Of a stretch of 64,000 nt of DNA, positions 8,731 to 59,784 are shown one piece after another; position 1 is the stretch's first letter; every line of letters starts with the position of its first letter. The position numbers and the translations under genes were made by a program. Source of the DNA: Archangium sp. (lineage in GTDB: Bacteria > Myxococcota > Myxococcia > Myxococcales > Myxococcaceae); NCBI GenBank assembly GCA_030681645.1, contig JAUXRX010000009.1:310001-374000 (forward strand). Reading direction: 5' to 3'. The notes beneath the pieces are model-generated. The model made no database searches, was not told where the DNA came from, and worked only from the letters and a program-made list of their open reading frames with translations.

Positions 8731-10163
8731 CACCGGTGGAGTCTGAACACGCGGGTGCTGCCGGCGACGCCCTTGAGCGCGACCTGCTCTTCGCCGCCCT
8801 TCCAGCCGGCCTCCAGCATCGTGGCGCGGACGCCCGGGCTGTCCATCACGCCCGGCGTGAGCACGATCTCGCCCGCCTCTGCCTGCCCCTGCACCCGGGC
8901 TGCGACGTTCACGGTCTGCCCGAAGTAGTCGAGCCGCTCGTCGGACGTGACCACCAGCGCCGGCCCTTCGTGCAGCCCCACCTTGAGCCCCGTGTCGTGG
9001 CCCTCGGCCTTGAGCCCGGCGTTGAGCGAGTCCATGCCCTGCATCATCTCGAGCGCGGCCTTCGCGGCGTCGGTGGGCTCGTTGAACGACGCCATGATCG
9101 CGTCGCCCATCGTCTTCACCAGCGCGCCGTTGTGCCGCTTCACCGCCTCGGTCAGCACCTTGAAGTGTTCGCGCACGAACGTGTACGCGCGGATGTCGCC
9201 GGTCCTGTCGTACAGCTGCGTGCTGCCCTTGAGATCGGTGAAGAGCAGGGTGAGCGAGCGCAGCCGCAGGCGCATGTTCGCGTCGAGCGACTGCACGCGG
9301 AACAGGTCGCGGAAGGTCTGGTTGTTGAGCAGCATCCGCGCGGTGAAGAACGGGTGAAATGTGTTCGGGTGCCCCCCGAGGATGTCACCCAGCTGGCTGC
9401 GATCTGCGCCCTCCACCACGAAGCCCACCGGGCTGGTGCCGCGGTTCACCACGCGCAGGGCGACCTTCCCCGGGGTGACCGCCACCGACGCAGGGCCCAG
9501 GCCGGTGGGGAGCGCGGTGACCTCGACGCTGTCGGCACCTCCCTCGGTGATGGGCAGCGCCACCTGGCTGTGCGTGTCGAGCGACATGAGCCGGTACGAG
9601 TGGCCCGCCTTCACCTCGAGCGTGAGTGACACCTCGGTGCCCGGCTCCACGGAATACGGCCCGCGCGTGGCGTCGTCGAGGAAGCGCTGGAAGGGCGCCG
9701 AGCGCTCGAAGCTGCTGCTGAAGAAGAAGCGCTGGTAGCTCGCCGCGTTCTTGAAGGTGTCGAACTCGAGCTCGCGAACGCCGACCTCGACCGAGAAGCC
9801 CACCTCGACGCGGTCGTCCAGCTCGGCCTCGAGATCGACCTGGCACATGAGGCAGTGAAACTGGCGCGCGGGCACCGCGTCCAGGCTGTCGAGCTGGTAC
9901 TCGATGCCACCGCACATCGGGCACACCAGGTTGAAGCGCAACTCGAGCAGCCCCGCGCGCGCCGCGTGCAGGAAGAGGTCGAGGGCCGCCCGTTGAGGCA
10001 GGCCGTGCGTGTCGGCGAAGCGCAGCGGGTTCACCCGGAAACACTTCCAGTCGTCGGGGTCCTGCAGCAGGGCCGCGAGGTGATCGACGTGTTGCCCATT
10101 GAGCCCGGGCACACCCCGCAGGGCTGCCAGCCGCTGCTCGAACAGTCGCTGGTTGAGGCGCAT
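8730..10163 (-). CDS. Class III adenylate/guanylate cyclase domain protein
   Basis: The protein (477 aa from ATG 10163; a GTG 6 nt upstream is an alternative) has three parts. The N-terminal part is DUF5939-like. It contains a Cys-x2-Cys pair (CPMCGG) and a second one (CLMC), which could bind zinc, and a following beta-rich sensor region. The C-terminal ~190 residues are a class III cyclase catalytic domain: TLLFTDLKGSTQLYDR carries a metal-binding Asp, GDAIMASF is the second conserved Asp region, and DYFGQTVNVAARV is the typical dimer/transition-state region. It should make cyclic AMP or cyclic GMP in the cytoplasm. It heads the minus-strand run that continues into the MYXO-CTERM protein. 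Confidence 0.85.
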   Translation of the reverse strand: MRLNQRLFEQRLAALRGVPGLNGQHVDHLAALLQDPDDWKCFRVNPLRFADTHGLPQRAALDLFLHAARAGLLELRFNLVCPMCGGIEYQLDSLDAVPARQFHCLMCQVDLEAELDDRVEVGFSVEVGVRELEFDTFKNAASYQRFFFSSSFERSAPFQRFLDDATRGPYSVEPGTEVSLTLEVKAGHSYRLMSLDTHSQVALPITEGGADSVEVTALPTGLGPASVAVTPGKVALRVVNRGTSPVGFVVEGADRSQLGDILGGHPNTFHPFFTARMLLNNQTFRDLFRVQSLDANMRLRLRSLTLLFTDLKGSTQLYDRTGDIRAYTFVREHFKVLTEAVKRHNGALVKTMGDAIMASFNEPTDAAKAALEMMQGMDSLNAGLKAEGHDTGLKVGLHEGPALVVTSDERLDYFGQTVNVAARVQGQAEAGEIVLTPGVMDSPGVRATMLEAGWKGGEEQVALKGVAGSTRVFRLHR

Positions 10164-10183
10164 CGCCACAGCGTACCCCCGAC

Positions 10184-10212
10184 TTGACAGTGGAATTGGG
10201 CTGCTTTACCTC
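10184..10212 (+). promoter_or_regulatory. Possible sigma-70-type promoter for the ABC operon
   Basis: A perfect -35 hexamer TTGACA at 10184-10189 is followed after 16-17 bp by a weak -10 (TTACCT / TACCTC). This lies about 35 nt upstream of the ABC ATPase start and also between the divergent cyclase gene and the operon. A strong -35 with a weak -10 is common in myxobacterial promoters. Not tested. Confidence 0.4.
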
Positions 10213-10246
10213 GCGCTCCGTCAACTCGTGCTGGTGAGAACAGACG

Positions 10247-11221
10247 ATGCCCAACTCGATGATCCGAATCGAGAGGCTGACGAAGCGCTACGGCCCCACC
10301 GAAGCGCTCAAAGGCCTCTCTTTTGAAGTACCCCGAGGGCAGGTGGTCGGGTTCCTGGGCCCCAACGGCGCAGGGAAGTCGACCACCATGCGGATCCTCG
10401 CGGGCTACCTGACGCCCACCGCCGGCCAGGCGCTGGTGGGTGACGTCGACGTGGTCGCAGAGCCCGTGCGTGCGCGCAGGCTCATCGGCTACCTGCCCGA
10501 GAACAACCCGCTCTACGAAGAGATGATGGTCGTCGACTTCCTCCGCTTCATCGCGGAAGCGCGCCAGGTCGACAAGGCCGTGCGCAGCGCCCGCATCAGG
10601 AACGCGGTCGAGCGCTGCGGCCTGGGCGGCGTGATCTCGAAGGACATCGGCCAGCTCTCCAAGGGCTACCGGCAGCGCGTGGGCCTCGCCCAGGCGATCC
10701 TCCACGAGCCTGACCTGCTCATCCTCGACGAGCCGACCTCGGGCCTCGACCCGAACCAGATCGTCGAGATCCGGGCGCTGATCAAGGACCTGGGCAGGGA
10801 GAAGACGGTCATCCTCTCCACGCACGTGCTGTCTGAGGTGCAGAGCACCTGCTCGCGCGTGTTGATCATCAACGACGGCAGGCTCGTCGCCGACGATTCC
10901 CCCGAGCACCTCACCGCGGGTGGGGAAGGCTCGCTCGTGATCGTCCTCGCCAGCCGCAACGGCGCTCCGCTCGACCCCGCGCACGTCGCGGGGCTGCTGC
11001 GCGCGGTGCCCGGCGTCACGGGCGTGGAGGGCGCAGAAGGCGAAGGTCACGGCACCGCGGGCTTCCGCCTGCGCTTCGGACTGGAAGATCCGCGCCGCGC
11101 GCTCTTCGAGGCGGTGGTGAAGCACGACCTGATGTTGCTCGAGGTGCGCCGCACGCAGGCCAGCCTCGAGGACACCTTCCGCAAGCTCACGGGCCAGCCA
11201 GAGCCCCGAAAGGCGGCGTGA
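10247..11221 (+). CDS. ABC transporter ATP-binding protein (Gld/ABC-2 type)
   Basis: The 324-residue ATPase has Walker A (GPNGAGKS) at about residue 38, the signature region LSKGYRQR, Walker B (LLILDEPTSGLD) and the switch His (STHVLSE). About 90 extra C-terminal residues end in a GldA-like tail (LEDTFRKLTGQ). It begins a four-gene plus-strand operon with tight spacing: permease, GldG-like protein and DUF4340 protein. In Bacteroidetes the GldAFG complex supports gliding, but in myxobacteria this set is widespread and its cargo is not established. It acts at the cytoplasmic face of the inner membrane. Confidence 0.9.
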   Translation: MPNSMIRIERLTKRYGPTEALKGLSFEVPRGQVVGFLGPNGAGKSTTMRILAGYLTPTAGQALVGDVDVVAEPVRARRLIGYLPENNPLYEEMMVVDFLRFIAEARQVDKAVRSARIRNAVERCGLGGVISKDIGQLSKGYRQRVGLAQAILHEPDLLILDEPTSGLDPNQIVEIRALIKDLGREKTVILSTHVLSEVQSTCSRVLIINDGRLVADDSPEHLTAGGEGSLVIVLASRNGAPLDPAHVAGLLRAVPGVTGVEGAEGEGHGTAGFRLRFGLEDPRRALFEAVVKHDLMLLEVRRTQASLEDTFRKLTGQPEPRKAA

Positions 11222-11222
11222 C

Positions 11223-11942
11223 ATGGAAAGCACCCTCGCCGTGGCGAAGCGCGAGTTCCGCACCTTCTTCGCCTCGCCCATCGCCTACATCGTCCTCGGC
11301 GGCTTCCTGCTGCTCGCGGGCTGGCTGTACTTCAGCACCCTGTTCCTCGCGGGGCAGGCCTCGCTCCGCGGCTTCTTCGGCGTGGTGCCCGTGCTCTTCG
11401 TGGTGCTCGTGCCCGCCATCACCATGCGCGCGCTCGCCGAGGAGCGGAAGAGCGGCACGCTCGAGCTCCTCCTCACCCTCCCCATGGAAGACTGGCAGAT
11501 CGTCGCCGGCAAGTTCCTCGCCGCGCTGGGTATGGTGGCGGTCGGCCTGGTGTGGACGATTCCCTACGCGGTCTCCGTCGCCTCGCTCACCGGCCCGGGC
11601 GCGCCGTTCGATTGGGGTCCGGTGCTCGCCGGGTATCTGGGCCTGCTGCTGCTCGCCGGCAGCTTCATCGGGCTGGGCCTGTGGGGCAGCGCCCTCTCGC
11701 GCAACCAGATCGTCGGCTTCATCGTCGGGCTGGTGCTCTGCTTCGCCTTCGCCTTCATCGACAAGTTCGCCGCGCTCCTGCCCGAGACGCTGGGCCAGGT
11801 GCTCGAGTACCTGTCGGTCGACTACCACTTCGACAACATCGCCCGCGGGGTCATCGATACCCGGGACCTGGTCTTCTACGTCTCGCTGACCGCGGTGGGC
11901 CTGCTGCTGACGACGAGGACGCTCTCGTCGGCCCGCAAGTGA
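11223..11942 (+). CDS. ABC-2 type permease (GldF-like)
   Basis: A 239-residue inner-membrane protein with six hydrophobic segments. It starts with AKREFRTFFASPIAYIVLG, the usual ABC-2 permease opening, and contains EERKSGTLELLLTLP, the conserved coupling region of this family. The start lies 1 nt after the preceding stop. Together with the ATPase it forms the transporter core. Confidence 0.9.
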   Translation: MESTLAVAKREFRTFFASPIAYIVLGGFLLLAGWLYFSTLFLAGQASLRGFFGVVPVLFVVLVPAITMRALAEERKSGTLELLLTLPMEDWQIVAGKFLAALGMVAVGLVWTIPYAVSVASLTGPGAPFDWGPVLAGYLGLLLLAGSFIGLGLWGSALSRNQIVGFIVGLVLCFAFAFIDKFAALLPETLGQVLEYLSVDYHFDNIARGVIDTRDLVFYVSLTAVGLLLTTRTLSSARK

Positions 11943-25023: not shown

Positions 25024-25755
25024 TCACGCCGGCGTCTTCGCGAGCACCGCCTCCGCGCTCCTCCTCCACCCGAACCCATCCCCAAGATCCCCTCTCTCCT
25101 TCGCCTCCGCCCTCGCAAGGTGCAGCGGCCCGGGCACCGTCGCGTACGGAATCCCTCTCCCGGTGATCGCCTCGGGGTGCTGCCGGAAGAACGCCTCCAA
25201 CAACCGCAGCACGCCTGGCTCGTCCTGCGGGCCGACGTCGATCAACGCCGAGTCAGCCCGATCGAAGTCGTGCGGCGAGTTCGACACGTACAGCGAGAAC
25301 CGCAGCTGGTCCGCCCACTTGCTCGCGCACGCCTCGACCAGGGCCGGCGCCGCCTCGTACGTGACCGGAATGAACAACTTCCCGTACCCATTCCCCACCA
25401 CGCACCCGCCCTGTCCGCCGTAGAGCGAGAAGCGGTGCGGGTGCAGGTTCTCCCTCGCCCGCGGCAGCCGCAGCGCGATCACGTCGTTCGCCTTCGCGTC
25501 GGCCGGCACGTACTGCCCCGGCTCGTCGACGAACACGGTGAGCTTCCCGTCGCTCACGAAGGCCCAGCCCACGCCCGGCCGCACCAGGCGGAACGACCAG
25601 TCCCACCCGGTCGCGCCCTGCGTGCACGCGGTGAGGTGCGCCACGAAGCCCGAGTCACCCGACGCGCGGTTGAGCTCCGGCCCTTCGCCGGGCCGCATCT
25701 TGAAGCGGCGCGAATGAAACCAGCGCACCTTCGGATCGCTCGAGGCGTCACTCAT
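25024..25755 (-). CDS. HopA1-family protein
   Basis: The 243-residue protein carries the features of the HopA1 family. It has an early W-x-W region (ATGWDWSFRLVRPG), a middle LRLPRARENLHPHRFSLYGG block and FIPVTYEAAPALVEAC. The most diagnostic part follows: FSLYVSNSPHDFDRADSALIDV (Arg-Ala-Asp-Ser) and the end DGFGWRRS. Its ATG overlaps the stop of a kinase-fold gene by 4 nt (ATGA). HopA1-like and APH-like proteins together form the dehydration machinery in thioamitide (TvaC/TvaD) and class V lanthipeptide (LxmK/LxmY) biosynthesis. No precursor peptide or cyclase gene was recognised. It could equally be a stand-alone modifying pair. Confidence 0.72.
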   Translation of the reverse strand: MSDASSDPKVRWFHSRRFKMRPGEGPELNRASGDSGFVAHLTACTQGATGWDWSFRLVRPGVGWAFVSDGKLTVFVDEPGQYVPADAKANDVIALRLPRARENLHPHRFSLYGGQGGCVVGNGYGKLFIPVTYEAAPALVEACASKWADQLRFSLYVSNSPHDFDRADSALIDVGPQDEPGVLRLLEAFFRQHPEAITGRGIPYATVPGPLHLARAEAKERGDLGDGFGWRRSAEAVLAKTPA

Positions 25756-26816
25756 CGCTTCACCTCACCCCACAGCACCGAAGGCCATTCCTTCGGCTGC
25801 CCCAGCATCTCGAGCGCGTGCTTCGCCACCCCGAGCGCCCGCGCGTCGAGCACCTGCTCGTAGTGCGTAATGCCGTACACCGAGATCAGCAGCGCCGTGC
25901 CGATCCACCGCACCACGCGCTCCTGGAAGTCCGCGTCTGGCTTGAACGTCGCTTCCCGCGCGCGCGTGTACGAGGCGATCAGCGCGTGCGCGAAGCCCTC
26001 GAGCACCGGTCGCCCCAGCACCTCGCTCCGGTGCTCCGGCGCCAGCCAGCCCAGCACGTAGTCCGACAGCAGGCTGCCCAGGTCGCGCGCGGGGTCGCCC
26101 CAGAACGAGAGCTCCCAGTCGAGGAAGACGATCGAGGTCGGGCCCTTGCCGGGCCTGGCCACCCGCAACAGGTTGGCCTGCCGCAGGTCTCCGTGGAGCA
26201 GCGCGTTCTCGCTCTCCCGCAGCTGCTGCGCCGAGAGCGCCTGCAGGCCGGTCATCGCCGGGCCGTCGGCCTGCACCCTGGCGAAGAAGTCGATGCCCGC
26301 GCCCGACAGCCGCGCGTAGAAATCGGGCCGCATGCGCAGGAAGCACTCGAGCAGATCCGACTCGTCGCGGAACGCATCGGCCAGCGCGTAGTGCGAGCGC
26401 CCCTCGCGGCTCATGCGGTGCAGAAACCCCAGCGCGTGCCCCACCTGCTCGGCCAGCCCGTCGGGGTAGTCACCCGAGCGGCGATGGAAGTGGTGCAGCG
26501 TCTCGCCGTGGTGAATCCATTCCAGGCCCAGCAGCCCGTGCGCGGGATCGAACGCGAACACGTGCGGCAGGTGCAGCGGGCTGCGCGGCGCGCGCGAGAG
26601 CGGCTCGACGCGCTCGAGCACGCTGCCCTCGCGGAGCACGCCCACGTTGCCCGGGCCGTCGGCGATCTTCACCAGCACCCGCTTCTTGCCCGTCTTCGCC
26701 TTGCACACCACGGTGCGGTTCTTCGAGGGCGGAGGCGAGGTCACCGACGGATCGCGCACCAGCCCCAGCACGGCCAGGCGGCCATCCAGCTCGGCGTCGG
26801 TGAGGGGGGCACGCAT
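25752..26816 (-). CDS. APH/choline-kinase-fold phosphotransferase
   Basis: From ATG 26816 (TTG 26870 is an alternative) the protein has 354 residues. The kinase core is complete: a Lys in KRVLVKIADG, the catalytic loop LLHGDLRQANLLRV (His-x-Asp-x4-Asn) and the metal-binding Asp in IVFLDWELSFWGDPARDLG. This is the aminoglycoside-phosphotransferase fold used by many small-molecule and peptide kinases. The 4-nt overlap with the HopA1-family gene indicates they work together. In known systems the kinase phosphorylates Ser/Thr of a peptide before elimination. Confidence 0.78.
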   Translation of the reverse strand: MRAPLTDAELDGRLAVLGLVRDPSVTSPPPSKNRTVVCKAKTGKKRVLVKIADGPGNVGVLREGSVLERVEPLSRAPRSPLHLPHVFAFDPAHGLLGLEWIHHGETLHHFHRRSGDYPDGLAEQVGHALGFLHRMSREGRSHYALADAFRDESDLLECFLRMRPDFYARLSGAGIDFFARVQADGPAMTGLQALSAQQLRESENALLHGDLRQANLLRVARPGKGPTSIVFLDWELSFWGDPARDLGSLLSDYVLGWLAPEHRSEVLGRPVLEGFAHALIASYTRAREATFKPDADFQERVVRWIGTALLISVYGITHYEQVLDARALGVAKHALEMLGQPKEWPSVLWGEVKR

Positions 26817-27737: not shown

Positions 27738-29429
27738 TCACAGCTCCGTGCTGGGCCGCTTGAGCTCGCTGCGGGGCGCTTCGGCGCCCTCGAGGAAGTT
27801 GAAGTCAGCGGCGGCGGCAGACTTCTCGGCCGGCGGCGCCACCACGGGCTGCTCGACGGGCTCGGCAGGGGCCGCTTCGGCCGCGACCACCGGCGCCACG
27901 TCCTGGCGCGCGGGGCGCGCGGCCGGCTTCGGGGCGGGCTTCGCGATCTTCGACAGGGGCGTGAGCTCGTCGAGCACCGGCGCCAGCGCGGCCTTCTGCG
28001 CGGGCACGGCCAGCACCGCCGGCTTGACCGGGGCGGCGACGGCCTCGGGGGTGCGCGTGGCCAGCATCACCACCACGCCGATGAGCGCGAGCGCCGCGCC
28101 CATCACGCCACCGAACACCATCCACACCCGGCGATTGTTGGCGTGGATCGCCTCGACCTCGGCCGCAGAGAGCGTCATCGCCCCATCGGCGAGCAGCTCG
28201 GGCGAGACCGACAACGAGTCGTTGAGCGCCACCGAGGGCGCGGCAGGCACCGCCGGCTTCACCTCGACCGGCGCGACGACGGGCGCCGCGACGGACTCGG
28301 CGCGGACCGCTTCGATCTCCTGCGTGGGAATGCGCACCACGTCGGGCGCGGGCTCGCTCACCTCGTCGAGCGTGTTCGCCTGCACCACGCGCGCGGGCGC
28401 GGCAGGCTCGGCCTTGAGCTCGAGCTGCGGCAGCGGGTCGGTCTCGACGGGCAGCTCGGCCGGAGTCCGTGCATCCCGAGCGGCGTCGAGGGACCTGGCC
28501 GCGGCGGCCTCGACCTGCGCGAGGGGCACCTCGCGGGTGGGCGCGCGCATCGCCTCGAGCTGCTGCTTCATCAGCGCGTCGGCGGCGGCGAGGATCTCCG
28601 GGGGCAGCCGCACGGCCTGCAGCTCGGGCACGGTGGGCAGCGAGTTCTGGGTGGGCACGTGCGCGAAGGCCTGGGCCACTTCGCCAGAGGAGGGACGCTG
28701 GGAGGCGTCGGTGGAGATCATCCGTTCCAGCATCTTCGCCCAGCGCTCAGGCAGGGACGGCGGCACGCGCGGCACCCACTGCCCCGCGGCGATGAGGTGC
28801 ACCACGCCCAGCGTCGTCGAGGCCGTCGGCAGCGGCGCGCCGGCAGACACGCAGAGGATCGCGCCCAGCGCGTACACGTCACCGGCCTGGCTGGCGCCTT
28901 CGCCCCGCGCCCGCTCGGGCGAGAGGTACGGCGCCGTCTTCACCAGGTTCTGCATCAGGCGGTTCTCACCGCGGCGATCGCTCAGGCGATTGGCGATGAC
29001 CAGCGGCATGTCCCACAGGCTGGCCTTGCCACCGGACACCATCAGCACCGAGTCGCGGCTCATCTCGCCGTGCACCACGCCCTGCGCGTGCACCGTGGCC
29101 AGCGCGTCGGAAAGCTGGGCGGCGAGCTTGAGCAGGAGCTCGTTGTCGAGGCGCTCTTCACCGCGCGCCGACAGCATCTCGCCGTCGGGAAAGTCGAGAG
29201 CCACGAAGGCCGAGGTGCCCACCTGGCCGGTCTGCAGGATGCGGGGCAGCGCGTGGTGGCTGGGCAGCTTCTCGCAAGCCTTCACCGCGGCATCGCCGTT
29301 CGCGTCGAGCGGCAGCCAACGCACCGCGAGGCGATCACCCGAGACGGTGTCCTCCGCGCAGTCGAGGCGACCGATGCCGTCACAGCGGAGCGGCGCACGA
29401 ATTCGAATGCGTGGGTCCAGCTCACCCAT
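27738..29429 (-). CDS. Membrane-anchored Ser/Thr pseudokinase
   Basis: From ATG 29429 the 563-residue protein has an N-terminal ~260-residue protein-kinase fold and then a Pro/Ala-rich linker. It has one membrane helix (VWMVFGGVMGAALALIGVVV) and an Ala-rich extracytoplasmic tail. Three catalytic signatures are altered: the VAIK Lys is Arg (LAVRWL), HRD is HGE (VVHGEMSRDSV) and DFG is WDM (LWDMPLV). The structural blocks YLSPERA and DVYALGAIL are retained. It should bind partners but not phosphorylate by the usual mechanism, acting as an envelope sensor or scaffold. The longer frame to 29516 includes sequence that looks like a gene relic. Confidence 0.8.
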   Translation of the reverse strand: MGELDPRIRIRAPLRCDGIGRLDCAEDTVSGDRLAVRWLPLDANGDAAVKACEKLPSHHALPRILQTGQVGTSAFVALDFPDGEMLSARGEERLDNELLLKLAAQLSDALATVHAQGVVHGEMSRDSVLMVSGGKASLWDMPLVIANRLSDRRGENRLMQNLVKTAPYLSPERARGEGASQAGDVYALGAILCVSAGAPLPTASTTLGVVHLIAAGQWVPRVPPSLPERWAKMLERMISTDASQRPSSGEVAQAFAHVPTQNSLPTVPELQAVRLPPEILAAADALMKQQLEAMRAPTREVPLAQVEAAAARSLDAARDARTPAELPVETDPLPQLELKAEPAAPARVVQANTLDEVSEPAPDVVRIPTQEIEAVRAESVAAPVVAPVEVKPAVPAAPSVALNDSLSVSPELLADGAMTLSAAEVEAIHANNRRVWMVFGGVMGAALALIGVVVMLATRTPEAVAAPVKPAVLAVPAQKAALAPVLDELTPLSKIAKPAPKPAARPARQDVAPVVAAEAAPAEPVEQPVVAPPAEKSAAAADFNFLEGAEAPRSELKRPSTEL

Positions 29430-29469
29430 GATTTCAGGCCCCTTTTTCAACAGTGAAGCGAGTTCGCAC

Positions 29470-29545
29470 CGCCTCAAGAGTCCCACCCCATACCACCCGG
29501 GCGCCTGCTTGCACACCCCCTCCGGGTCACCTGAAACCGGGGGGT
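29470..29545 (-). pseudogene. Relic of the 3' end of a lipoprotein gene
   Basis: Read on the minus strand, this segment (ggtttcaggtgacc, then cccgggtggtatgggg) matches the last ~25 codons of the lipoprotein gene at 30376-32952 (VSGAL ... QAGSRVVWGGSLGA), with a 1-nt indel. It appears to be a decayed duplicate of that C-terminus, left just upstream of the pseudokinase start. Confidence 0.45.
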
Positions 29546-49167: not shown

Positions 49168-52100
49168 TCAGCTCCGCGATGAACGCCGGCGCCGCGACAG
49201 CACCGCCAGCACGCCCAGCCCGAGCCCGAACAGCGACCCATCGAAGCTGCTGCACCCGCAGCTGACGCCGCCCGCGCCGCCGCCACCGCCGACGGGAGCC
49301 TCGCCGAGGGAACCCGACCCACCATCGGCCACGCCCACCGTGTTGCTCGGAGGCGCGACGAAGGTGAAGCCGCCGGTCAGGGTCGAGGTCTGCGCGTCAT
49401 CGTTGGTGAACACCACGTCGACGATGCCCGCCGCGTGCGCAGGCACCACCGCGCGCGCCAGCACGTTCGAGACGATGACCACGTCGGTGGCAGGAACGCC
49501 GCCGACCGTGATGGTCGCGCCGGCCGCGAAGCCCGTGCCGGTGAGGGTGAGCAGCGTGCCGCCCGCGATGGGCCCGCTGGGCGGCGCGACGCCCGTCAGG
49601 GTGGGCGCCCCGCGCGTGTAGGTGAAGCCGCCGGACAGCGTCGCGATCGCGCCGTCGGTGGAGACCTCGACGTCGACCGCGCCCGGCATGTGCGCCGGCG
49701 TCACCGCGTCGAGCTCGCTGCTGCTCACCAGGGACACGTTCGTCGCGGCCGTGCCGCCGAAGCGGACCGTGGTGCCGGCCCCGAAGCCGGACCCCGTGAC
49801 CCGCACCAGCGTGCCACCCGCGACGTCACCCGTGCCCGGCGCCGCCATGGTGACGGTGGGAGGCGCCACGAAGCGGTACGCGCGCGCGAGCGTGGCCGAC
49901 TGCGAGTCGAGGCTCGTCACCCTCACCTCGACCACGCCGACGGCGTGGGCAGGCGTGAGCGCGGTGAGCTGCGTGGGCGAGACGACCGTGACGCCCGTCG
50001 CCCCGTCGGTGCCGAAGCGCACCTGGGTGCCCGCGCCGAAGCCCGTGCCGGTGAGCGTGACCACCGTCCCGCCGGCGGTCGTGCCGCTGATGGGCGAGAC
50101 GGCCGTGAGCGTGGGCGCCGCGTCGTAGGTGAAGGCCCCGGCGAGGGTGGCGCGCTGCGTGTCGGGGTTGGTGAGCACCACGTCGACCGCGCCGGCCGCG
50201 CTGCCGTTGGTCACGGCGGTGGCCGTGGTCGCGCTGGTGACGGTGACGGCGAAGGCCGGCACGCCCCCCAGCTGCACCGAGGCGCCGGCCTGGAAGTCCG
50301 TGCCGGTGAGGGTGATGGTCGTGCCTCCGCCCACCGGGCCACGCGCCGGGCTCACCGAGGTGATCGCCGGCCCGGCCACGTAGCGGAAGCCGCCGGTGCG
50401 CGTGGCGAACTGCGCGTCGGGGTTGGTGATGCGCACGTCGGCGAGGCCACCCATGCCCGGCGGGGTGACGGCGGTCACCTGCGTGAGGCTGAGCCGGCTG
50501 ACGCCGGTCGCCGGGTTGCCGCCGATGGTGACCGTGGGCGCGGGCTGGAAGCCCGTGCCGGTGATGGTGATGATCGTGCCACCCGCGGCGAAGCCCACCG
50601 CCGGCGTGATGGTGGTGATGGTGGGCGCCGGGTAGTTGTAGGTGAAGGCACCCGGCGAGACCGTCTGCTGCGTGTCGGTGTTGACGACGGTGACGCTGAC
50701 GGCGCCGTCCACCAGCGCCGGGGGGGTGGTGACGGTGAGCGAGCTGCCGCCCGGGTCGACCACCACGTTGGTGCCCGCGTTCGCGCCGAAGCGCACCGCC
50801 GCGCCCGCGCGGAAGGCCGTGCCGGCGATGGTCACCGTGAGGCCGCCGGCGGTGAAGCCCGTGTTGGGCGTGACCGAGGTGATGGTGGGCGGGGCGAGGT
50901 AGGTGAAGACGTCGGCCCGCGAGCCCTCGAGCGCGTCGACGGGGTTGCGCACCGTGAGGCTCGCCAGCCCCGCCGCGTGCGCGGGCGTGGTGGCCCTCAG
51001 CAGCGTCGAGTTGACGACCACCACGTTGGTGGCCTGCTGGGGCGCGCCGCCCACGCTCAGCCGAACCTCGGCCCCCGTCTTGAAGAGCAGGCCGTTGACG
51101 GTGATGACCGTGCCCCCCGCGGTGGGGCCCGAGACCGGCGTCACCGAGGTGACGGTGGGCGGCCCGGCGGGCGCGAAGTAGAGGAAGCCGCCCGCGAGCG
51201 TCGCGGTCTGGCCTCCGGCGTTGCTCACCACCACGTCGACGGCGCCTTCGAGGCCCGGGGGCGTGAGCACCTCGAGGGTGGTGGCGGTGCGGCTGACCAC
51301 CGCCGCGGCCCCGCCGCCGATGGTCACCGCGGCGAGCGCGGCGAAGTTCGAGCCGGTGAGCGTCACCGTGGTGCCGCCCGACACCGTGCCCGTCGCGGGG
51401 GTCAACGAGCTGAGCGCGGGCGCGCCGATGCCACCGCCGGTGGTGCAGTCCTTCGAGATCGACAGCACGTACTGGCCGGTGCCGGTCGCCGACGTGCGGC
51501 CGACCCGCGCGAAGAACGCGCCGCCCACCCGCACCCGGTACACCAGGGTCTCCGAGGGCAGGGCAGGCGAGGTCGAGTTGAGTGCCCCGGTGGCGACGGT
51601 GTTGTTGACCGTCGTGCCCGAGTCGTTGACCGAGACCAGCACCGCGCCGGTCGCGTCGAGGAGCTGCAGGGTGTGGTTTCCCGTCGCCGTCGAGCCCGAG
51701 CGCGAGGGCTGCGAGTCGAGGGCCAGGAACAACAGGTCGCCCACGCGCGCGTCGAAGGCGAAGAGATCGACGTCGGCCGTGGTGGCGACCTCGCCGCTGA
51801 AGTAGTTCGACGTGCCGCCGCCGGCCGTCGCCAGCGTGTCGTTGGGCTCGCTCTCAGCGGCCGGCGTGCCCGGCTGAATCACCGAGTACAGGCGGTAGGG
51901 CTCGCGCGCCGTGGTGGCCGAGAAGTAGTTGACCCGCAGGTAGGCCGGGAGGTTCGGCAGCGGCGTGCCGGCGATCGCGCCCGAGCTGCCGCCGAAGTTG
52001 AGGTCGGCGTTGAGGTCGTCGTACTCGAGGGTGTCGGTGTCGCTGGTGACCCTCAGATCGAAGTCGTTCGAGGCGCTGCCCGCGTTGCCCGCCGAGGCGG

Positions 52101-53256
52101 CCTCGAGGAGGGCGTAAACGCGCGCGCCCGCCTGGTTGGTGCCCAGCGAGAAGAAGTCGACCTCGCCGTTGGTCGCGATGCGGCCGGTGACGGGACACGC
52201 CAGGGGCGCGGCCGTGGCGACGGTGTCGTTGGGTTCCACCTCAGCGGTGCAGGCGGTCACTTCGAGCTCGTAGCTGGTGCCCGCGGTGCTCAGCGCGGTC
52301 TCGTCAGCCCAGATGAAGTAGGGCGTGGCGCTGGTGAGCGGCAGGCAGATCAGCTCTTCGGCCGCGGTGGTGGTGCCGCCGCTGCGGTTCGAGGCGGCGA
52401 TGCACTGGGGCGGCGCGTAGATCTGCGGCGGCGTCATCGCGGGAACGCAGCTGTCCGTCATGTAGAGGACCGAGTTCACCGAGGCGGGGTTGAAGCCCAG
52501 GCGCACACTGTAGGTGCCGGTCGCCGGCGGGGTGAAGCTGAAGACCACGTCGCGGCCCGGCGAGGTGTTGTTGGCCGCCGTGGTGCTGTGGCCCAGGCCC
52601 GTGAAGCAGGTCGGCCCTGCACCCCCGTCGAGGATGCCCCCGAGCTGCGAGTCGTTGTTGGTGAGCCCGTTGGTGGAGAAGGCCAGCGGGGTGTTCAGCA
52701 CCAGCGACGGCACGCCCGCGCCGCAGCGATCGTTGGCCGGGGGCAGGAGCGGGCGCACGGTCAGCGCGGTGACCAACGTCGGGTCGAGCGTGACCGTCGA
52801 GAACACGGCCACCTGCACGTAGTAGGTGGTGCCCGCCGTCAGCGCGAGGCTGATGGCCGAGGCGTCGAAGGTGCCGCAGCCGGCGGTGTCGTTGCAGCCG
52901 GTGGTCGAGGTGCCCACCGCCGTCAGCCCCGCGCAGGTGCCCGAGTAGAGCTGGAGCACCGTGTCGTAGTTGGTGACCGCCCCGCAGGTCTCGATCACGT
53001 AGGTGCCGTTCGAGGGCACGGTGAAGGTGTACCAGACGCTGTTGTTCACCGACGTGGCGGCGCAGGTGAAGGCCGTCTCCACTGCCGCTGCGGTGAGATC
53101 GATGCGCGTCGCGGTCGTCGAAGTGGCGGGGCCGCCGCTCACGTCGAGCGGCTCGGCGTTCGCGCACGCGTCGTTGACCGGCTGTGCTGCCGCCGAGCCT
53201 GCCACCACCGCCGCCACCACCACCAAGCCCCGAAACAGAGAAGAGAAGCTGGACAT
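49168..53256 (-). CDS. Giant TIG-repeat surface protein with MYXO-CTERM-like anchor
   Basis: A 1362-residue secreted protein with a signal peptide ending AAAQP. Two or three N-terminal beta-sandwich (PPC-like) domains rich in Cys pairs follow (NNSVWYTFTVPSNGTYVIETCG). Then come eight IPT/TIG domains in tandem (pattern: PTITSVTPNTGFTAGGLTV, PTLTAVSPISGTTAGGTVV, and so on), a Gly-rich spacer, and a CGCSS ... RRRR tail of the MYXO-CTERM type. TIG domains mediate adhesion or ligand binding. It is the last of four giant genes on the minus strand. Confidence 0.85.
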   Translation of the reverse strand: MSSFSSLFRGLVVVAAVVAGSAAAQPVNDACANAEPLDVSGGPATSTTATRIDLTAAAVETAFTCAATSVNNSVWYTFTVPSNGTYVIETCGAVTNYDTVLQLYSGTCAGLTAVGTSTTGCNDTAGCGTFDASAISLALTAGTTYYVQVAVFSTVTLDPTLVTALTVRPLLPPANDRCGAGVPSLVLNTPLAFSTNGLTNNDSQLGGILDGGAGPTCFTGLGHSTTAANNTSPGRDVVFSFTPPATGTYSVRLGFNPASVNSVLYMTDSCVPAMTPPQIYAPPQCIAASNRSGGTTTAAEELICLPLTSATPYFIWADETALSTAGTSYELEVTACTAEVEPNDTVATAAPLACPVTGRIATNGEVDFFSLGTNQAGARVYALLEAASAGNAGSASNDFDLRVTSDTDTLEYDDLNADLNFGGSSGAIAGTPLPNLPAYLRVNYFSATTAREPYRLYSVIQPGTPAAESEPNDTLATAGGGTSNYFSGEVATTADVDLFAFDARVGDLLFLALDSQPSRSGSTATGNHTLQLLDATGAVLVSVNDSGTTVNNTVATGALNSTSPALPSETLVYRVRVGGAFFARVGRTSATGTGQYVLSISKDCTTGGGIGAPALSSLTPATGTVSGGTTVTLTGSNFAALAAVTIGGGAAAVVSRTATTLEVLTPPGLEGAVDVVVSNAGGQTATLAGGFLYFAPAGPPTVTSVTPVSGPTAGGTVITVNGLLFKTGAEVRLSVGGAPQQATNVVVVNSTLLRATTPAHAAGLASLTVRNPVDALEGSRADVFTYLAPPTITSVTPNTGFTAGGLTVTIAGTAFRAGAAVRFGANAGTNVVVDPGGSSLTVTTPPALVDGAVSVTVVNTDTQQTVSPGAFTYNYPAPTITTITPAVGFAAGGTIITITGTGFQPAPTVTIGGNPATGVSRLSLTQVTAVTPPGMGGLADVRITNPDAQFATRTGGFRYVAGPAITSVSPARGPVGGGTTITLTGTDFQAGASVQLGGVPAFAVTVTSATTATAVTNGSAAGAVDVVLTNPDTQRATLAGAFTYDAAPTLTAVSPISGTTAGGTVVTLTGTGFGAGTQVRFGTDGATGVTVVSPTQLTALTPAHAVGVVEVRVTSLDSQSATLARAYRFVAPPTVTMAAPGTGDVAGGTLVRVTGSGFGAGTTVRFGGTAATNVSLVSSSELDAVTPAHMPGAVDVEVSTDGAIATLSGGFTYTRGAPTLTGVAPPSGPIAGGTLLTLTGTGFAAGATITVGGVPATDVVIVSNVLARAVVPAHAAGIVDVVFTNDDAQTSTLTGGFTFVAPPSNTVGVADGGSGSLGEAPVGGGGGAGGVSCGCSSFDGSLFGLGLGVLAVLSRRRRSSRS

Positions 53257-53275
53257 GTGAGACCTCGAAACGGAA

Positions 53276-56200
53276 TTAGCGGGGAACGAAGCGGAACGCC
53301 GTGTTCGGGCGGATCAGCTGCTGGTTGATGGAGATGACGAGCGCCTGCGTGCCGGCCGGGTTCTCCAGCCACGCCGTGGCTGAGGTGCCGGCGGCGTAGT
53401 TGCTGGTCGAGCCCGAGACCATCGAGCCGTAGTGGTACTCGATGACGCCGCTCTCGAAGAGCTTGAGCTCGAAGTTCATGTTGTCGGCCGGCGAGGTGAG
53501 CCAGTAGCTGAAGGCCTTCCACTGGAAGACCCAGTGCTGCTGCGGCGTGGCCGGGTCTTCGTTGGCGGCGAAGTGCTTCCAGTACATCTCGCTGTCGGGG
53601 TTCGGGCTGTCGAGGTCGTCCCAGAAGACGGCCACCGAGCCCGCGTTGGTCGCGCTCGCCAGCGTCCTGTTCGACCAGGCGCTGACCGCGACCGTGCCCC
53701 ACATGAGGTAGCCGTTGCCCATCATGGTCACCTGCGGGCGGGCCACGCCGAACGCCACGGGCGCCGGGTCGCCCACGTTGGGCGCGAGGTTGATGGGCGC
53801 GGGGTACTCCGTCGCCGCCACGCCGTTGAGCAGGGGCGTGCCGGCGTCGCTGATGTCGACGAACTTCGAGGGAATGACCTGGAGCGAGTAGGCGAAGCCG
53901 CAGCCGGGATCGCTGCCGGGCGTGCCGAGCTGCGCGGGCGTCTGCGAGCCGTAAGGGGTGGTGGCGAGGCAGGCCTGCAGGCCCGGTGTACCGCTGGTGC
54001 CGACGATCGGCCCCGGGTCGACGTTGATGCCCTGGCCGCGGCCGCCGTCTGCCGGGCCGGTGTAGGTGAAGCCCGCGCCCGCGTCGGCGGTGCCGATGGT
54101 GAAGCTGCCCGCGTCCTGCGAGAGGAAGAAGCCCGAGGCCCCCCACGCCAGCGAGACGCCCGCGTCGTCGTTCTCCGCTGGATCGGTCGAGACCCCGATG
54201 ACGGTGGCCACGTTGGGCTGCAGCATGAAGCCGCCCGGCACGAAGAAGGTGGGGGCGTTCGGTGCGCGCAGCTCCCAGCCCGAGAGATCGAGCGCGGCGG
54301 GGGTGCGGTTGATCACCTCGAGGTACTGGCCGTTGGGCACCGCCGCGTGCGTGCGGAACATGAGCTCGGTCAGCCCGATGTCGTTGGGAATCAGGTACGC
54401 GCCGGCCTGCTGGGTGACGAGCGAGTACACGTCACCCACCTTCACGTAGCCGCCCAGGCTCGAGCCCCTGGCCACGCGCACCTCCGCCGGAGGCGCGACG
54501 GGGCTGAAGAAGTAGAGCGCCGAGTTGCCCGCAGGCGCCGGCACCGAGCGCACCCCCACCAGCCGCGTGTCATCCTGCACGCCGATGGTGAACGAGGTGT
54601 AGCCGCTCGCCAGCGTCATGGTGGCGTAGCGGAACGACACCATGCCGTGCTGGTGGACCTGGGCCTGGAACGTCACCTCGGTGGCCGCGTTGGTGCCGAC
54701 CTGCATCCGGTTCCACTGCACGAAGAGCGACTGATCAGGCGCCTCGCCCACCACCTGCACGTAGACGCCGGAATTGGCGGTGAAGGTGAGGTCGTCCCAG
54801 AAGGGCGCGATGAGCCCGGCAGGGCCGGTGGTGCTCGGCAGCGTGGCGGCGTTGGTGGCCGTGACCACCAGCGGCGCGCCCCACGCGAGCCAGCCGGCGC
54901 GCGAGACGGTGAGCGGTCCGCTGCGGCGCTGGCCGCCGACGAACGCGGTGAAGGGCAGGGTGACCGAGGTGACCTCGGAGCCCGTCTCGAGCACGCGGGT
55001 GCCGGTGCCGCTGATGTCGCGGAAGTCGGCCTGCGTGGCGGGGAGCACCTGGTTGTGCGCGAAGCCGTAGAGCAGCGCGCCGGGCGCCGCCGTGGTGACC
55101 TGCACGTTCTGGCCGCTGATCGCGGTGGGCGGGAACTGCGTCACCGTGGGCGTCGCGCCCGTCACCGTCACCGCCGCCGTCGCCGTCACCGCCGGGTTGC
55201 CCAGGGTGTTGTCCGCGGAGAGCGTGAAGGTGGTGCTCACGTCGGGGTACACGGTCGCAGTGCCGTTCTCGGCGGCCTGGCCCGTCACCGAGAACACCAC
55301 CTGGCCCAGCGAGTCGACGATGCGGGCGCGCCGCGCCTCGGTGCTCGCGAAGGTGAGGGTGACCGGCTGGCCGACGGCGACGGTGGCAGGGCTCGCGGTG
55401 AGCGTGGCCGCGGTGGGAACACCGACCGAGTCGACCTGGGCGACGCGGCTGACCCGCCCGCCGCGCGCGTTGGTGGCGATCACCTCGACCGAGAAGTCGG
55501 CCATGGGCGAGACGAAGGCGAAGATGCCCACCGCCGCGGTCTGCCGCGAGGGCGTCTGGTGCACGGTGACGCCGTCGAGCTTGAGCTCGACCTGGTCGGC
55601 GGCGCGGGTCTCCCAGCGCACCGAGTAGCTGGCGCCGGCTGAGGCGAACGCAGGCGCGTCGAGGCGGGTGATGGCCAGCCCCGTGCCCACGAACACCTCG
55701 AGGGTGCGGGTGAAGCGCGTGGTGCCCTTCACCGCCGCCACTTCATAGGTGATGACGCCGTCGTTCGGCGTGGGGGGCACCACGTCGGCGAACGTGCCCG
55801 ACTGGATCTGCGCGGGCGTGGTGGCCTCGAACAGCTGGCCCCGCCCGTTCGCGCTCACCACCACCCGGTCGGCGCCTGCGGCGGTCCAGGACAGGGTGAC
55901 GGTGTCGGAGACCTCGGCCGCGCGCGGGCTGGCGTCAGCGCTGAGCACCGCCGGCTGCACCACGACGTTGACCGTCTTCGTCACGCCGTCGGCGGTGAGC
56001 GTGTAGGTGGTGTCGAACGCGGGCGACACGGTGACCGCGCCGCTGGTGCGCTGGCCGGCGATGTCGACCATCTGGGTGCCGGCGGTGAGCGTGACCAGGC
56101 TCGCGCCCGGCGCCGTCCACGCCAGCGTGGTGCTCGCGCCGCCGGCGATGACCGGGGGCAGCGCCTGGAAGGAGAGCTCGCCCACCACCTGGCCCGAGAG

Positions 56201-56539
56201 CCCGACCGAGACCGCGCGCGCGTCAGAGCCGCCCGGCCCGCGCGCCACGAGCACGAAGAGCGACGCCGCGTCGATGGTGGCCACGAAGGTGCCTTCGAGG
56301 GTGGTGGTGGGTACGGCGAGCGCGCCGCCTGACGCCTCGCGCAGCTCGATGCTGGTGGCGTTGGCCGTCTTCCAGCTCAACGTCACGGTGTCACCCGGCG
56401 CCACCTGGGCGGCCGAGGCGGTGAACGTCTCCACCGACGGGGGCGGGGGCACCACGGTGGCGGGCTTCTCGATGCGGCAGCCCGAGAGCGCCACGACGGC
56501 GAGCAGCGAAGAGAACTTCAGCGTGTGGAGAGTGCGCAT
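53276..56539 (-). CDS. Giant Ig-like/lamin-tail lipoprotein (paralogue A)
   Basis: From ATG 56539 (GTG 56548 overlaps the previous stop) the 1087-residue lipoprotein (VVALSGC) begins with about five Ig-like repeats whose strands carry a Leu-Ser/Ala-Trp motif (TVTLSWKTANATSIEL, STTLAWTAPGASLVTL). Two nidogen-like beta modules flank a lamin-tail-like domain (YLEVINRTPAALDLSGWELRAP). It ends TAFRFVPR. The two genes before it in transcription order are full-length paralogues. The domain set suggests an extracellular adhesive or ligand-binding role. Confidence 0.82.
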   Translation of the reverse strand: MRTLHTLKFSSLLAVVALSGCRIEKPATVVPPPPSVETFTASAAQVAPGDTVTLSWKTANATSIELREASGGALAVPTTTLEGTFVATIDAASLFVLVARGPGGSDARAVSVGLSGQVVGELSFQALPPVIAGGASTTLAWTAPGASLVTLTAGTQMVDIAGQRTSGAVTVSPAFDTTYTLTADGVTKTVNVVVQPAVLSADASPRAAEVSDTVTLSWTAAGADRVVVSANGRGQLFEATTPAQIQSGTFADVVPPTPNDGVITYEVAAVKGTTRFTRTLEVFVGTGLAITRLDAPAFASAGASYSVRWETRAADQVELKLDGVTVHQTPSRQTAAVGIFAFVSPMADFSVEVIATNARGGRVSRVAQVDSVGVPTAATLTASPATVAVGQPVTLTFASTEARRARIVDSLGQVVFSVTGQAAENGTATVYPDVSTTFTLSADNTLGNPAVTATAAVTVTGATPTVTQFPPTAISGQNVQVTTAAPGALLYGFAHNQVLPATQADFRDISGTGTRVLETGSEVTSVTLPFTAFVGGQRRSGPLTVSRAGWLAWGAPLVVTATNAATLPSTTGPAGLIAPFWDDLTFTANSGVYVQVVGEAPDQSLFVQWNRMQVGTNAATEVTFQAQVHQHGMVSFRYATMTLASGYTSFTIGVQDDTRLVGVRSVPAPAGNSALYFFSPVAPPAEVRVARGSSLGGYVKVGDVYSLVTQQAGAYLIPNDIGLTELMFRTHAAVPNGQYLEVINRTPAALDLSGWELRAPNAPTFFVPGGFMLQPNVATVIGVSTDPAENDDAGVSLAWGASGFFLSQDAGSFTIGTADAGAGFTYTGPADGGRGQGINVDPGPIVGTSGTPGLQACLATTPYGSQTPAQLGTPGSDPGCGFAYSLQVIPSKFVDISDAGTPLLNGVAATEYPAPINLAPNVGDPAPVAFGVARPQVTMMGNGYLMWGTVAVSAWSNRTLASATNAGSVAVFWDDLDSPNPDSEMYWKHFAANEDPATPQQHWVFQWKAFSYWLTSPADNMNFELKLFESGVIEYHYGSMVSGSTSNYAAGTSATAWLENPAGTQALVISINQQLIRPNTAFRFVPR

Positions 56540-56544
56540 GTCGA

Positions 56545-59500: not shown

Positions 59501-59769
59501 ATGGCCACGTCGACCTCTCCGCTGTTGCCGGAGACGCCGGACACCGAGCCCAGCTTGAGCTCGTCGATCTTCACCGAGGTGGCGTTCTCCACGCTCCAGG
59601 TGAGCTTGACGGTGGTGCCGACGGGCACCAGTGACTGGGACGCGGTGAACGAGCTGACGGCAGGCGCCGGCTCGAGCGGATCGGGGTCAGGCACCTTTGG
59701 GCAGGCGATGAACAGCGAGGTGAGCAGCGCGCCGAGGCCGAGGCGGGAGAGCAGGGAAGTGGTCTTCAT
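56545..59769 (-). CDS. Giant Ig-like/lamin-tail lipoprotein (paralogue B)
   Basis: From ATG 59769 the 1074-residue lipoprotein (LFIACPKVPDP) has the same order as paralogue A: Ig-like repeats (GTTVKLTWSVENATSVKIDEL, SVTLAWSAPGATAVTL), a nidogen-like module, a lamin-tail-like domain (WAELRNARDTALDLTGWTF) and a second beta module with WIIQWHHFSYYTTST. It ends SAFRFVPR. Its last bases overlap the possible GTG start of paralogue A. Confidence 0.82.
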   Translation of the reverse strand: MKTTSLLSRLGLGALLTSLFIACPKVPDPDPLEPAPAVSSFTASQSLVPVGTTVKLTWSVENATSVKIDELKLGSVSGVSGNSGEVDVAITDDSLFVLTARNARGVSDTAVVSVRVGAAAGDILFTALPDTIGAGESVTLAWSAPGATAVTLTATPGGAIDVMGQAASGSVTVTPAANTTYTLTAGVRSATTTVTVRPTLLSFSASSLSADAGSMITLSWSTANATRVQLTAPGRGTLVDEMDAMRVASGSFADTLPAQVDPGQLFAYEITVTGAGTTLTDSVIVSVAGNPAVVTFTAPPYARSVDGGVVSLAWTTREADQVSIAADGVEIYRAPTQALAAAGTLQVPTPPADVVYTLHARNSRGGEASASKTVDVVGIPTVTLTATPMSVAGGAPVTLSWSGEHIRNVAILEAGFGSVFGATGVQDTGTAIVLPNGDTTYTIEVDNTLGDRATATAMITVTNPVTLAVAETGALRVGQNVNVSWTLPGSTPSIVGLGHDGVDVRAASTGFDNIALTGTKLTFAATGNIVASIDTSFRTILFGRAVGEKITVTRNGTLTFGYANGQNTVDEALPSTKLEPLSIAPYWESLTLSGGVFWQVKTVAGVQTLIVQWVTSTANFQAKIAASGQIDFEYSALPTTAAGRVGITGVRKDQVVIGPAAVVGQGFTFFGPRPSPVLLRVQAQGPIAGHLDLGGGQLLRLSSNLATVVSPDELIINEALPASTVGVPGQWAELRNARDTALDLTGWTFSLADGGALALSGTVPARGLLVVGASTDPALNDDAGVQVAIANFDLSGETALTLNRGGPHGSLSLALADAGTALVNDLGPYRYNTGSGAGRCAATATFGGQSTPQKGTPGLDTGCSFPYVLASATPGYFDISDAGTPLVVSDFDDSIAAVNLGANPIPFFGTPRSSVQVSTNGFVTFDATLASDTNYISSTTPSTTDSNLVAAVFARDLIGNTLIPGAQIYSRRVGAGEDPFASAPHWIIQWHHFSYYTTSTVIRDDYNFQVKFFDDGVIEYHYDTMLSTSSSQYGSGIGTVTWLENAAGTQALTVNAQSSNPGISPRSAFRFVPR

Positions 59770-59784
59770 GTGCGTGTCCACGAC

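What the first reader, a model, noticed from the sequence alone, without database searches (positions are those of the whole stretch)
25024..26816. HopA1-family protein translationally coupled to an APH-fold kinase: dehydration pair without an obvious precursor
The two genes overlap by 4 nt. The smaller encodes the FDRADSALIDV and GFGWRR features of HopA1-like proteins; the larger has intact kinase motifs (HGDLRQAN, FLDWE). The same pairing is used to dehydrate Ser/Thr in thioamitide (TvaC/TvaD) and class V lanthipeptide (LxmK/LxmY) biosynthesis. Here an SDR gene lies directly upstream, but no precursor peptide, transporter or cysteine decarboxylase was recognised. This could be an uncharacterised peptide-modifying pathway or a pair acting on a distant or non-RiPP substrate.
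Basis: partly seen in the sequence, partly recalled or inferred. Interest (0 to 1): 0.72.

Follow-up and report, generated by a model that had tools for sequence, protein, structure and literature searches.

The report
Peptide-dehydrating pair with disarmed lyase
Two coupled genes that look like the kinase and lyase with which bacteria build antibiotic-like peptides turn out to be an old, steadily kept pair in one myxobacterial lineage whose lyase half has lost active-site residues, so the pair probably phosphorylates something rather than making a dehydrated peptide.

Summary
In detail: a 243-aa HopA1-like gene and a 354-aa APH-fold kinase gene overlap by 4 nt, and no precursor was found nearby. 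The family profiles match the two chains of one solved kinase-lyase complex (9DK1), so the pair is kin to class V LanK/LanY dehydratases.

The 'dehydration pair' reading is not supported. In 18 of 18 orthologues ('A type') the lyase lacks the catalytic Lys (now Y/H/C/A/F/S) and Tyr (always Asp). In 21 of 21 other HopA1 lyases aligned, from six phyla, both are kept. Kinase motifs are intact, both genes are under purifying selection, and conservation in the HopA1 protein has shifted towards the stretch expected to dock the kinase.

On a DnaN tree of 30 genomes the 18 A-pair genomes form one clade without exceptions, unlike a patchy biosynthetic cluster. The same genome holds a second pair ('B type') with an intact lyase and, directly upstream, a Cys-free repeat peptide (8-15 PL[K/T/R/A]S units): a convincing precursor, with no counterpart at A loci.

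Best reading: a domesticated peptide or protein kinase with a pseudo-lyase partner that leaves the phosphate on.

The parts
25024..25755 (-). HopA1-like protein P0001 (243 aa), predicted pseudo-lyase subunit
25752..26816 (-). APH-fold, LxmK-like kinase P0002 (354 aa), catalytic motifs intact
25752..25755 (-). 4-nt ATGA overlap (translational coupling); 11 of 18 A-type pairs overlap by 4 nt, 6 by 1 nt, 1 (L032) has a gap; L031 counted with its GTG start
25288..25290 (-). codon of Tyr156, at the position of the lyase catalytic Lys (CaoY K219, SpvC K136)
25237..25239 (-). codon of Asp173, at the position of the lyase catalytic Tyr (CaoY Y236, SpvC Y158); Asp in 18 of 18 A-type
25258..25260 (-). 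codon of Arg166 (CaoY R229 position), kept in 17 of 18 A-type
25378..25380 (-). codon of Lys126 (CaoY R187 / SpvC K104 position), kept in 18 of 18 A-type
25513..25668 (-). residues 30-81, the best-conserved stretch of A-type HopA1; by offset it covers the kinase-contacting part of CaoY (102-141), an inference
26118..26189 (-). kinase catalytic loop to metal-binding Asp (HGDLRQAN, Asp210; LDWE, Asp233)

Best explanation
The pair is a class V-type (LanK/LanY-like) dehydratase that has been domesticated. P0002 is an active Ser/Thr kinase of a peptide or protein encoded elsewhere. P0001 is a pseudo-lyase: it keeps the HopA1 fold and the part that should dock the kinase, but no longer eliminates phosphate; it would stabilise the kinase and help hold the (phospho)substrate. 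The end product would be a phosphorylated, not a dehydrated, target. Shown here: homology, conserved pairing, absence of two catalytic residues throughout one clade, intact kinase motifs, purifying selection, vertical retention, and no linked precursor found. Inferred: kinase activity, the docking role, loss of lyase activity, and the kind of substrate.
For: Lys and Tyr lost in 18 of 18 A-type proteins and kept in 14 of 14 other myxobacterial and 7 of 7 plasmid-borne lyases. A-type is one clade in both trees (97/96 kinase; 100/100 HopA1). Kinase Lys50, His208, Asp210, Asn215 and Asp233 are invariant in 18 A and 11 non-A kinases. dN/dS against four congeners 0.10-0.18 (kinase) and 0.12-0.24 (HopA1). 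Conservation has shifted to residues 30-81: 0.68 identity in A against 0.45 in B, and 0.35 against 0.55 in residues 179-243. On the DnaN tree the 18 A genomes are one clade without exceptions (99/98). No precursor: 0 of 18 A loci against 7 of 7 B loci, supported. Published: CaoY K219A gives phosphopeptide only, and CaoK is mostly insoluble without CaoY (PMC9486802).
Against: No structure could be predicted and no activity was tested. Lys126 and Arg166 are kept, and A-type has private invariant residues (Asp173, Arg99, Arg108) that could form a changed active site. The substrate is unknown, and a kinase of this fold could also act on a small molecule.
Confidence: 0.5

Rival explanations
1. Active dehydratase with a re-wired lyase site (Asp173, Lys126, Arg99, Arg108) acting on a precursor encoded elsewhere in the genome: an uncharacterised RiPP pathway with a split locus.
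For: Lys126 kept in 18 of 18 and Arg166 in 17 of 18; private invariant residues in A-type.
Against: The residue at the Lys position varies freely among Y, H, C, A, F and S. No relative of the B-type precursor was found in the 9 A-only genomes searched. Retention across the clade is unlike a typical biosynthetic cluster.
Confidence: 0.2
2. The kinase phosphorylates a small molecule, and the HopA1 protein is only a scaffold.
For: The APH fold includes many small-molecule kinases; several PDB matches are of that kind.
Against: The best PDB match is the peptide kinase of 9DK1, and the best NCBIfam match is LxmK. The HopA1 partner, a peptide-handling fold, has stayed linked and conserved in 18 of 18 loci.
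Confidence: 0.14
3. The pair acts in trans on a known neighbour or cousin: the membrane pseudokinase P0005, or the B-type repeat precursor.
For: P0005 occurs in all 18 A genomes (22 of 96 family genomes) and near 7 of 18 A pairs. In genomes with both pairs the B precursor is present.
Against: P0005 follows a larger clade that includes a genome without any pair, and its tail is conserved there and different in one A genus. Of 18 A genomes 11 showed no B pair.
Confidence: 0.06
4. A decaying remnant of a lost RiPP cluster.
For: Lost catalytic residues, a shortened N-terminus in 14 of 18 A-type HopA1 proteins, no precursor.
Against: Low dN/dS in both genes, 42 invariant HopA1 residues over 18 rows, no stop inside the 18 gene pairs, presence in every sampled member of the clade.
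Confidence: 0.03

Closest known systems
Class V lanthipeptide dehydratase LanK/LanY (CaoK/CaoY, LxmK/LxmY); PDB 9DK1 kinase and lyase chains
   Same: Same two folds as adjacent coupled genes; both family profiles find their best PDB matches in the two chains of 9DK1.
   Different: Lyase Lys and Tyr absent; no LanA-like precursor or lanthipeptide tailoring gene recognised at the locus; retained clade-wide.
Thioamitide TvaC/TvaD, TsaC/TsaD
   Same: APH-like kinase plus HopA1 protein (PMC8153245, passages).
   Different: No YcaO, TfuA or cysteine decarboxylase gene was recognised among the neighbours looked at (most were judged by eye, not scanned), and no precursor.
B-type pair of the same genome (L047) and seven like it
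   Same: Homologous kinase and HopA1 genes; same order.
   Different: B keeps Lys and Tyr and sits directly behind a Cys-free PL[K/T]S repeat peptide.
Kinase-fold pseudo-enzymes TvaE/KinH in RiPP pathways
   Same: An apparently inactive homologue kept as a partner (PMC9415263, passages).
   Different: There the kinase fold is dead; here the kinase looks live and the lyase looks dead.

Membership tests
HopA1 family (PF17914) | Pfam score over the cut-off | tested here: inconclusive
   Window protein 19.8 of 22.7 bits, L034 no hit; orthologues L038 and L041 clearly over.
HopA1 / LanY phospho-Ser/Thr lyase | Catalytic Lys and Tyr (CaoY K219, Y236) | tested here: not met
   Absent in 18 of 18 A-type proteins.
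HopA1 / LanY phospho-Ser/Thr lyase | Basic residues at the CaoY R187 and R229 positions | tested here: met
   Lys126 18 of 18, Arg166 17 of 18.
Class V LanK kinase | APH fold with intact catalytic motifs | tested here: met
   but below the NCBIfam equivalog cut-off for LxmK.
Class V LanK/LanY dehydratase | Kinase and HopA1 genes adjacent | tested here: met
   22 of 22 other loci; 9 of 12 further stretches.
Class V lanthipeptide or other RiPP cluster | Precursor peptide gene beside the pair | tested here: not met
   with B-type loci as positive control. A single-locus, non-repetitive, unconserved precursor would escape these tests.
Class V lanthipeptide or other RiPP cluster | Conserved tailoring or export genes beside the pair | tested here: not met
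   Neighbours differ even within the genus; a NicO-like gene lies within the fetched stretch of 6 of the 14 A loci. Not every neighbour was scanned with Pfam.
Class V LanK/LanY dehydratase | Dehydration of Ser/Thr by the pair | not testable with these tools
   Needs an assay.

The most novel reading that the evidence does not exclude
A RiPP dehydratase has left natural-product biosynthesis: early in one myxobacterial clade the LanY lyase lost its active site, and the kinase plus pseudo-lyase became a core cellular Ser/Thr phosphorylation module, with the former lyase now a dedicated docking or phospho-substrate-holding subunit.
Probability: 0.4. Interest if true: 0.78.

Novelty: new variant of a known kind. 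Interest (0 to 1): 0.6.

Why it matters
HopA1-APH pairs serve as a genome-mining handle for dehydrated peptides. A clade in which the lyase half looks disarmed warns that the handle can mislead, and offers a natural kinase plus pseudo-lyase in which to ask what the HopA1 subunit does besides catalysis. The intact B-type pair with its repeat precursor in the same genome is a built-in control, and is itself a candidate new family of Cys-free dehydroamino-acid peptides.

Tried and rejected
Precursor search at A loci. Searches were too noisy (Arg/Ala-rich out-of-frame ORFs) and were replaced with composition correction and a control. That control found the precursor in 5 of 7 B loci; the other two precursors (L047, L100) fall under the script's own rule that sets aside larger called genes. 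A large precursor at an A locus could be set aside the same way; the comparison of called genes (14 of 18 A loci) showed no such recurrent gene.

P0005 as substrate. Its co-occurrence with the A pair looked striking, but the DnaN tree showed that both follow a clade, and its tail does not track the pair. G117 looked like a joint loss, but it lacks DnaN too, which points to incompleteness.

Defence role: no PADLOC hit for P0001 or P0002 (P0005 hits kinase-containing models there). Plasmids: no match for P0001; P0002 finds only distant relatives there, 12 records.

SDR partner: no relative in 22 other loci. NicO-like transporter: too patchy (6 of 14).

Structure prediction of A1 (the Arg99/Arg108 pocket question): never obtained; no fold search was run.

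Rows dropped: the L049 kinase fragment from the kinase tree; the C-terminal fusion part of L045 from the HopA1 alignments and tree. L103 (weak hit in a 3,416-aa open frame) and L104 (no kinase) were not counted as pairs. G001 (79% complete) has only a kinase fragment, was not counted as an A pair and is not in the DnaN tree, nor is G117. The DnaN tree holds 30 of 96 genomes.

Full report
OBSERVATION. The HopA1-like CDS runs 25755 to 25024 and the kinase CDS 26816 to 25752, both on the minus strand, sharing four bases. The window HopA1 protein alone is a sub-threshold PF17914 hit (E 7.9e-4, 19.8 of 22.7 bits). Longer orthologues are clear hits (L038 4.3e-12, L041 2.9e-13), while L034, as short as the window's protein, has none. 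The kinase hits APH (1e-11) and, better, the class V LxmK model NF038156 (2.4e-24, far below its 315-bit cut-off). That model rings below its cut-off in 5 of 14 control genomes and finds two matches in this genome, both next to a HopA1 gene. The kinase best matches chain A of PDB 9DK1, titled Kinase (1.6e-5 as a single sequence; 1.2e-11 as profile A2). The 23-row HopA1 profile A1 best matches chain B of the same entry, titled Lyase (5.4e-16). The 18 A-type rows alone (A3) reach it only at 0.0062, and P0001 as a single sequence finds no lyase in the PDB.

CONSERVATION AS A PAIR. A search of 60 genomes (own included) found P0001 relatives in 17. The 22 loci other than the window's own have the kinase directly upstream in 22 of 22 cases. 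A search of 96 genomes of the family found HopA1 relatives in 23; a search of 195 genomes of the phylum added two, G036 and a weak hit in G132. Of the 12 further stretches then fetched, nine carry kinase and HopA1 together. The other three are L103 (the weak G132 hit), L104 (HopA1 without kinase) and L105 (a contig end bearing a precursor). Of 18 window-type pairs, 11 overlap by 4 nt, 6 by 1 nt and one has a gap.

TWO KINDS OF PAIR. The window pair belongs to a group I call A: 18 loci in 18 genomes and nine genera (WIN, L029-L041, L094, L096, L098, L099). The same genome carries a second pair on another contig (L047), one of eight 'B' pairs (L046-L050, L095, L097, L100). L042-L045 are intermediates, and L101 and L102 are pairs beside LanC-like genes. 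On an alignment of all 32, the position of CaoY Lys219 is Lys in 14 of 14 non-A proteins but Tyr, His, Cys, Ala, Phe or Ser in the 18 A proteins. The position of CaoY Tyr236 is Tyr in 14 of 14 non-A and Asp in 18 of 18 A. Seven HopA1 lyases from plasmids of Deinococcota, Cyanobacteriota, Bacteroidota, Actinomycetota and Pseudomonadota keep both residues. The two basic positions equivalent to CaoY R187 and R229 are kept in A (Lys126 18 of 18; Arg166 17 of 18). In CaoY, K219A left only phosphopeptide and R187A nearly abolished elimination (PMC9486802, parts 1-3 of 5 read). The kinase catalytic residues are invariant in the 22 kinases and in 18 A plus 11 non-A kinases. A is a single clade in the kinase tree (97/96) and the HopA1 tree (100/100). 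In the kinase tree its sisters are the Lys/Tyr-bearing L042 and L043 (91/86, not starred); in the HopA1 tree that branching is unresolved. Treekit warned of long branches in the kinase tree. One loss early in the clade is the simplest reading.

STILL SELECTED. dN/dS between the window and four congeners is 0.10-0.18 for the kinase and 0.12-0.24 for HopA1; against other genera it is 0.28-0.42 and 0.34-0.61, where dS looks saturated. Conservation has moved within the HopA1 protein. In residues 30-81 mean pairwise identity is 0.68 for nine A proteins (one per genus) against 0.45 for eight B. In residues 179-243 it is 0.35 against 0.55. Over residues 30-243 the two sets are comparable, 0.51 and 0.55. 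In the published AlphaFold model CaoY contacts CaoK mostly through residues 102-141. Counting from R187, that is about residues 41-80 here; this mapping is an inference without a structure. A also has private invariant residues, among them Arg99 (Cys in 12 of 12 B and intermediates) and Arg108 (Phe or Tyr there).

INHERITANCE. In a DnaN tree of 30 family genomes (the 30 best matches fetched, of 96 genomes) the 18 A genomes form one clade (99/98) with no member lacking the pair. Two possible members are outside the tree: G001, 79% complete, has a kinase fragment, and G117, 85% complete, has a B pair only. B pairs are patchy: 8 of the 96 genomes. A thus behaves like a core gene pair, and B like an accessory cluster.

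PRECURSOR. The seven B pairs with complete upstream sequence have, 12-50 nt before the kinase, a peptide of about 110-191 aa beginning MPRIN, MPRIP, MPRVT or MPRIT, with 8-15 PL[KTRA]S units, 24-32% proline and no Cys. The eighth (L049) starts near a contig end inside the kinase, and a matching precursor sits at the end of another contig of that genome (L105). L045 and L044 have other Ser/Thr-Pro repeat peptides in that place. JmjC-domain genes (Pfam for L047 and L097) and aldo/keto-reductase-like genes lie near several B pairs; the latter had no Pfam hit in the two tested, so that name is by resemblance. Annotated aldo/keto reductases also sit beside cyanobacterial pairs, not compared here. 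A search with the L047 precursor over 26 genomes hit 7: five with B pairs, G014 (the L045 locus) and G008, a weak match with three stops; G002 also has a weak second match. None of the nine A-only genomes among them was hit. Around 18 A loci, 287 intergenic small ORFs gave one cluster in three or more loci, the out-of-frame start of P0005; the same script on seven B loci returned the precursor as its top cluster, in five of them. PLxS repeat ORFs: 0 of 18 A, 7 of 7 B, 1 of 4 intermediates.

NEIGHBOURS. The SDR gene has no relative in the 22 other loci, and P0004 (23883-24857) only in three congeners. P0005, a membrane protein with a kinase-like domain whose HRD-like motif reads HGE and whose DFG-like motif reads WDM, is near 7 of 18 A pairs and present in 22 of 96 genomes, including the 18 A genomes. 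The DnaN tree shows that it follows a larger clade including G028, which has no pair, so co-occurrence proves nothing; its tail is not pair-specific.

INTERPRETATION. The pair descends from a class V-type dehydratase but fails the defining residues of its lyase. The most economical account is an active Ser/Thr kinase whose HopA1 partner has become a pseudo-lyase retained for complex stability and substrate handling. An altered active site is not excluded (invariant Asp173, Lys126, Arg99, Arg108). A small-molecule substrate is possible but less likely, because both subunits have stayed together.

NOVELTY. HopA1-phosphotransferase pairs as a RiPP signature are known (PMC8153245, passages only: 1,340 HopA1 proteins, 96% beside a phosphotransferase). 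PMC9415263, PMC10880069 and PMC10604976 were seen in passages. I found no paper describing a HopA1 pair without lyase residues, or such pairs in myxobacteria, in the listings. Supplementary data sets, where such loci may be listed, could not be opened. Hence: new variant of a known kind.

Noticed in passing
L047 (own genome, C47:215000-234000) 8987-11585; also L046, L048, L050, L095, L097, L100: B-type kinase-HopA1 pairs with intact lyase residues directly behind a Cys-free, proline-rich peptide of 8-15 PL[K/T/R/A]S units, with JmjC-domain and aldo/keto-reductase-like genes nearby: a candidate new family of dehydroamino-acid repeat peptides.
   Followed up: partly
L044 10166-10447 (-) and L045 3-335 (+): Different Ser/Thr-Pro repeat peptides (PTPTATRPVK units; SIRP units) directly upstream of other intact pairs. 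In L045 the HopA1 protein is 616 aa, fused to the aldo/keto-reductase-like part seen as a neighbour elsewhere.
   Followed up: partly
L104 2208-3650 (-) (G026:C94): A 480-aa open frame with a HopA1-like C-terminal part (E 1.6e-13) and no kinase found beside it; its N-terminal part looks LysM-like by eye.
   Followed up: no
27738-29516 (-): P0005: kinase-like domain with degenerate HGE and WDM motifs, one predicted membrane span (by eye), and a proline-rich tail ending DFxFL...LKRP in most orthologues but not in genus g5; confined to one clade of the family.
   Followed up: partly
L101 and L102 (G085, G060): Kinase-HopA1-LanC loci, the known HopA1-LanC kind, in two genomes of the same family; in L102 the HopA1 region spans two overlapping frames.
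   Followed up: no
49168-63069 (-): Four very large consecutive genes on the minus strand (1,362, 1,090, 1,074 and 1,094 aa), the last three of similar length.
   Followed up: no
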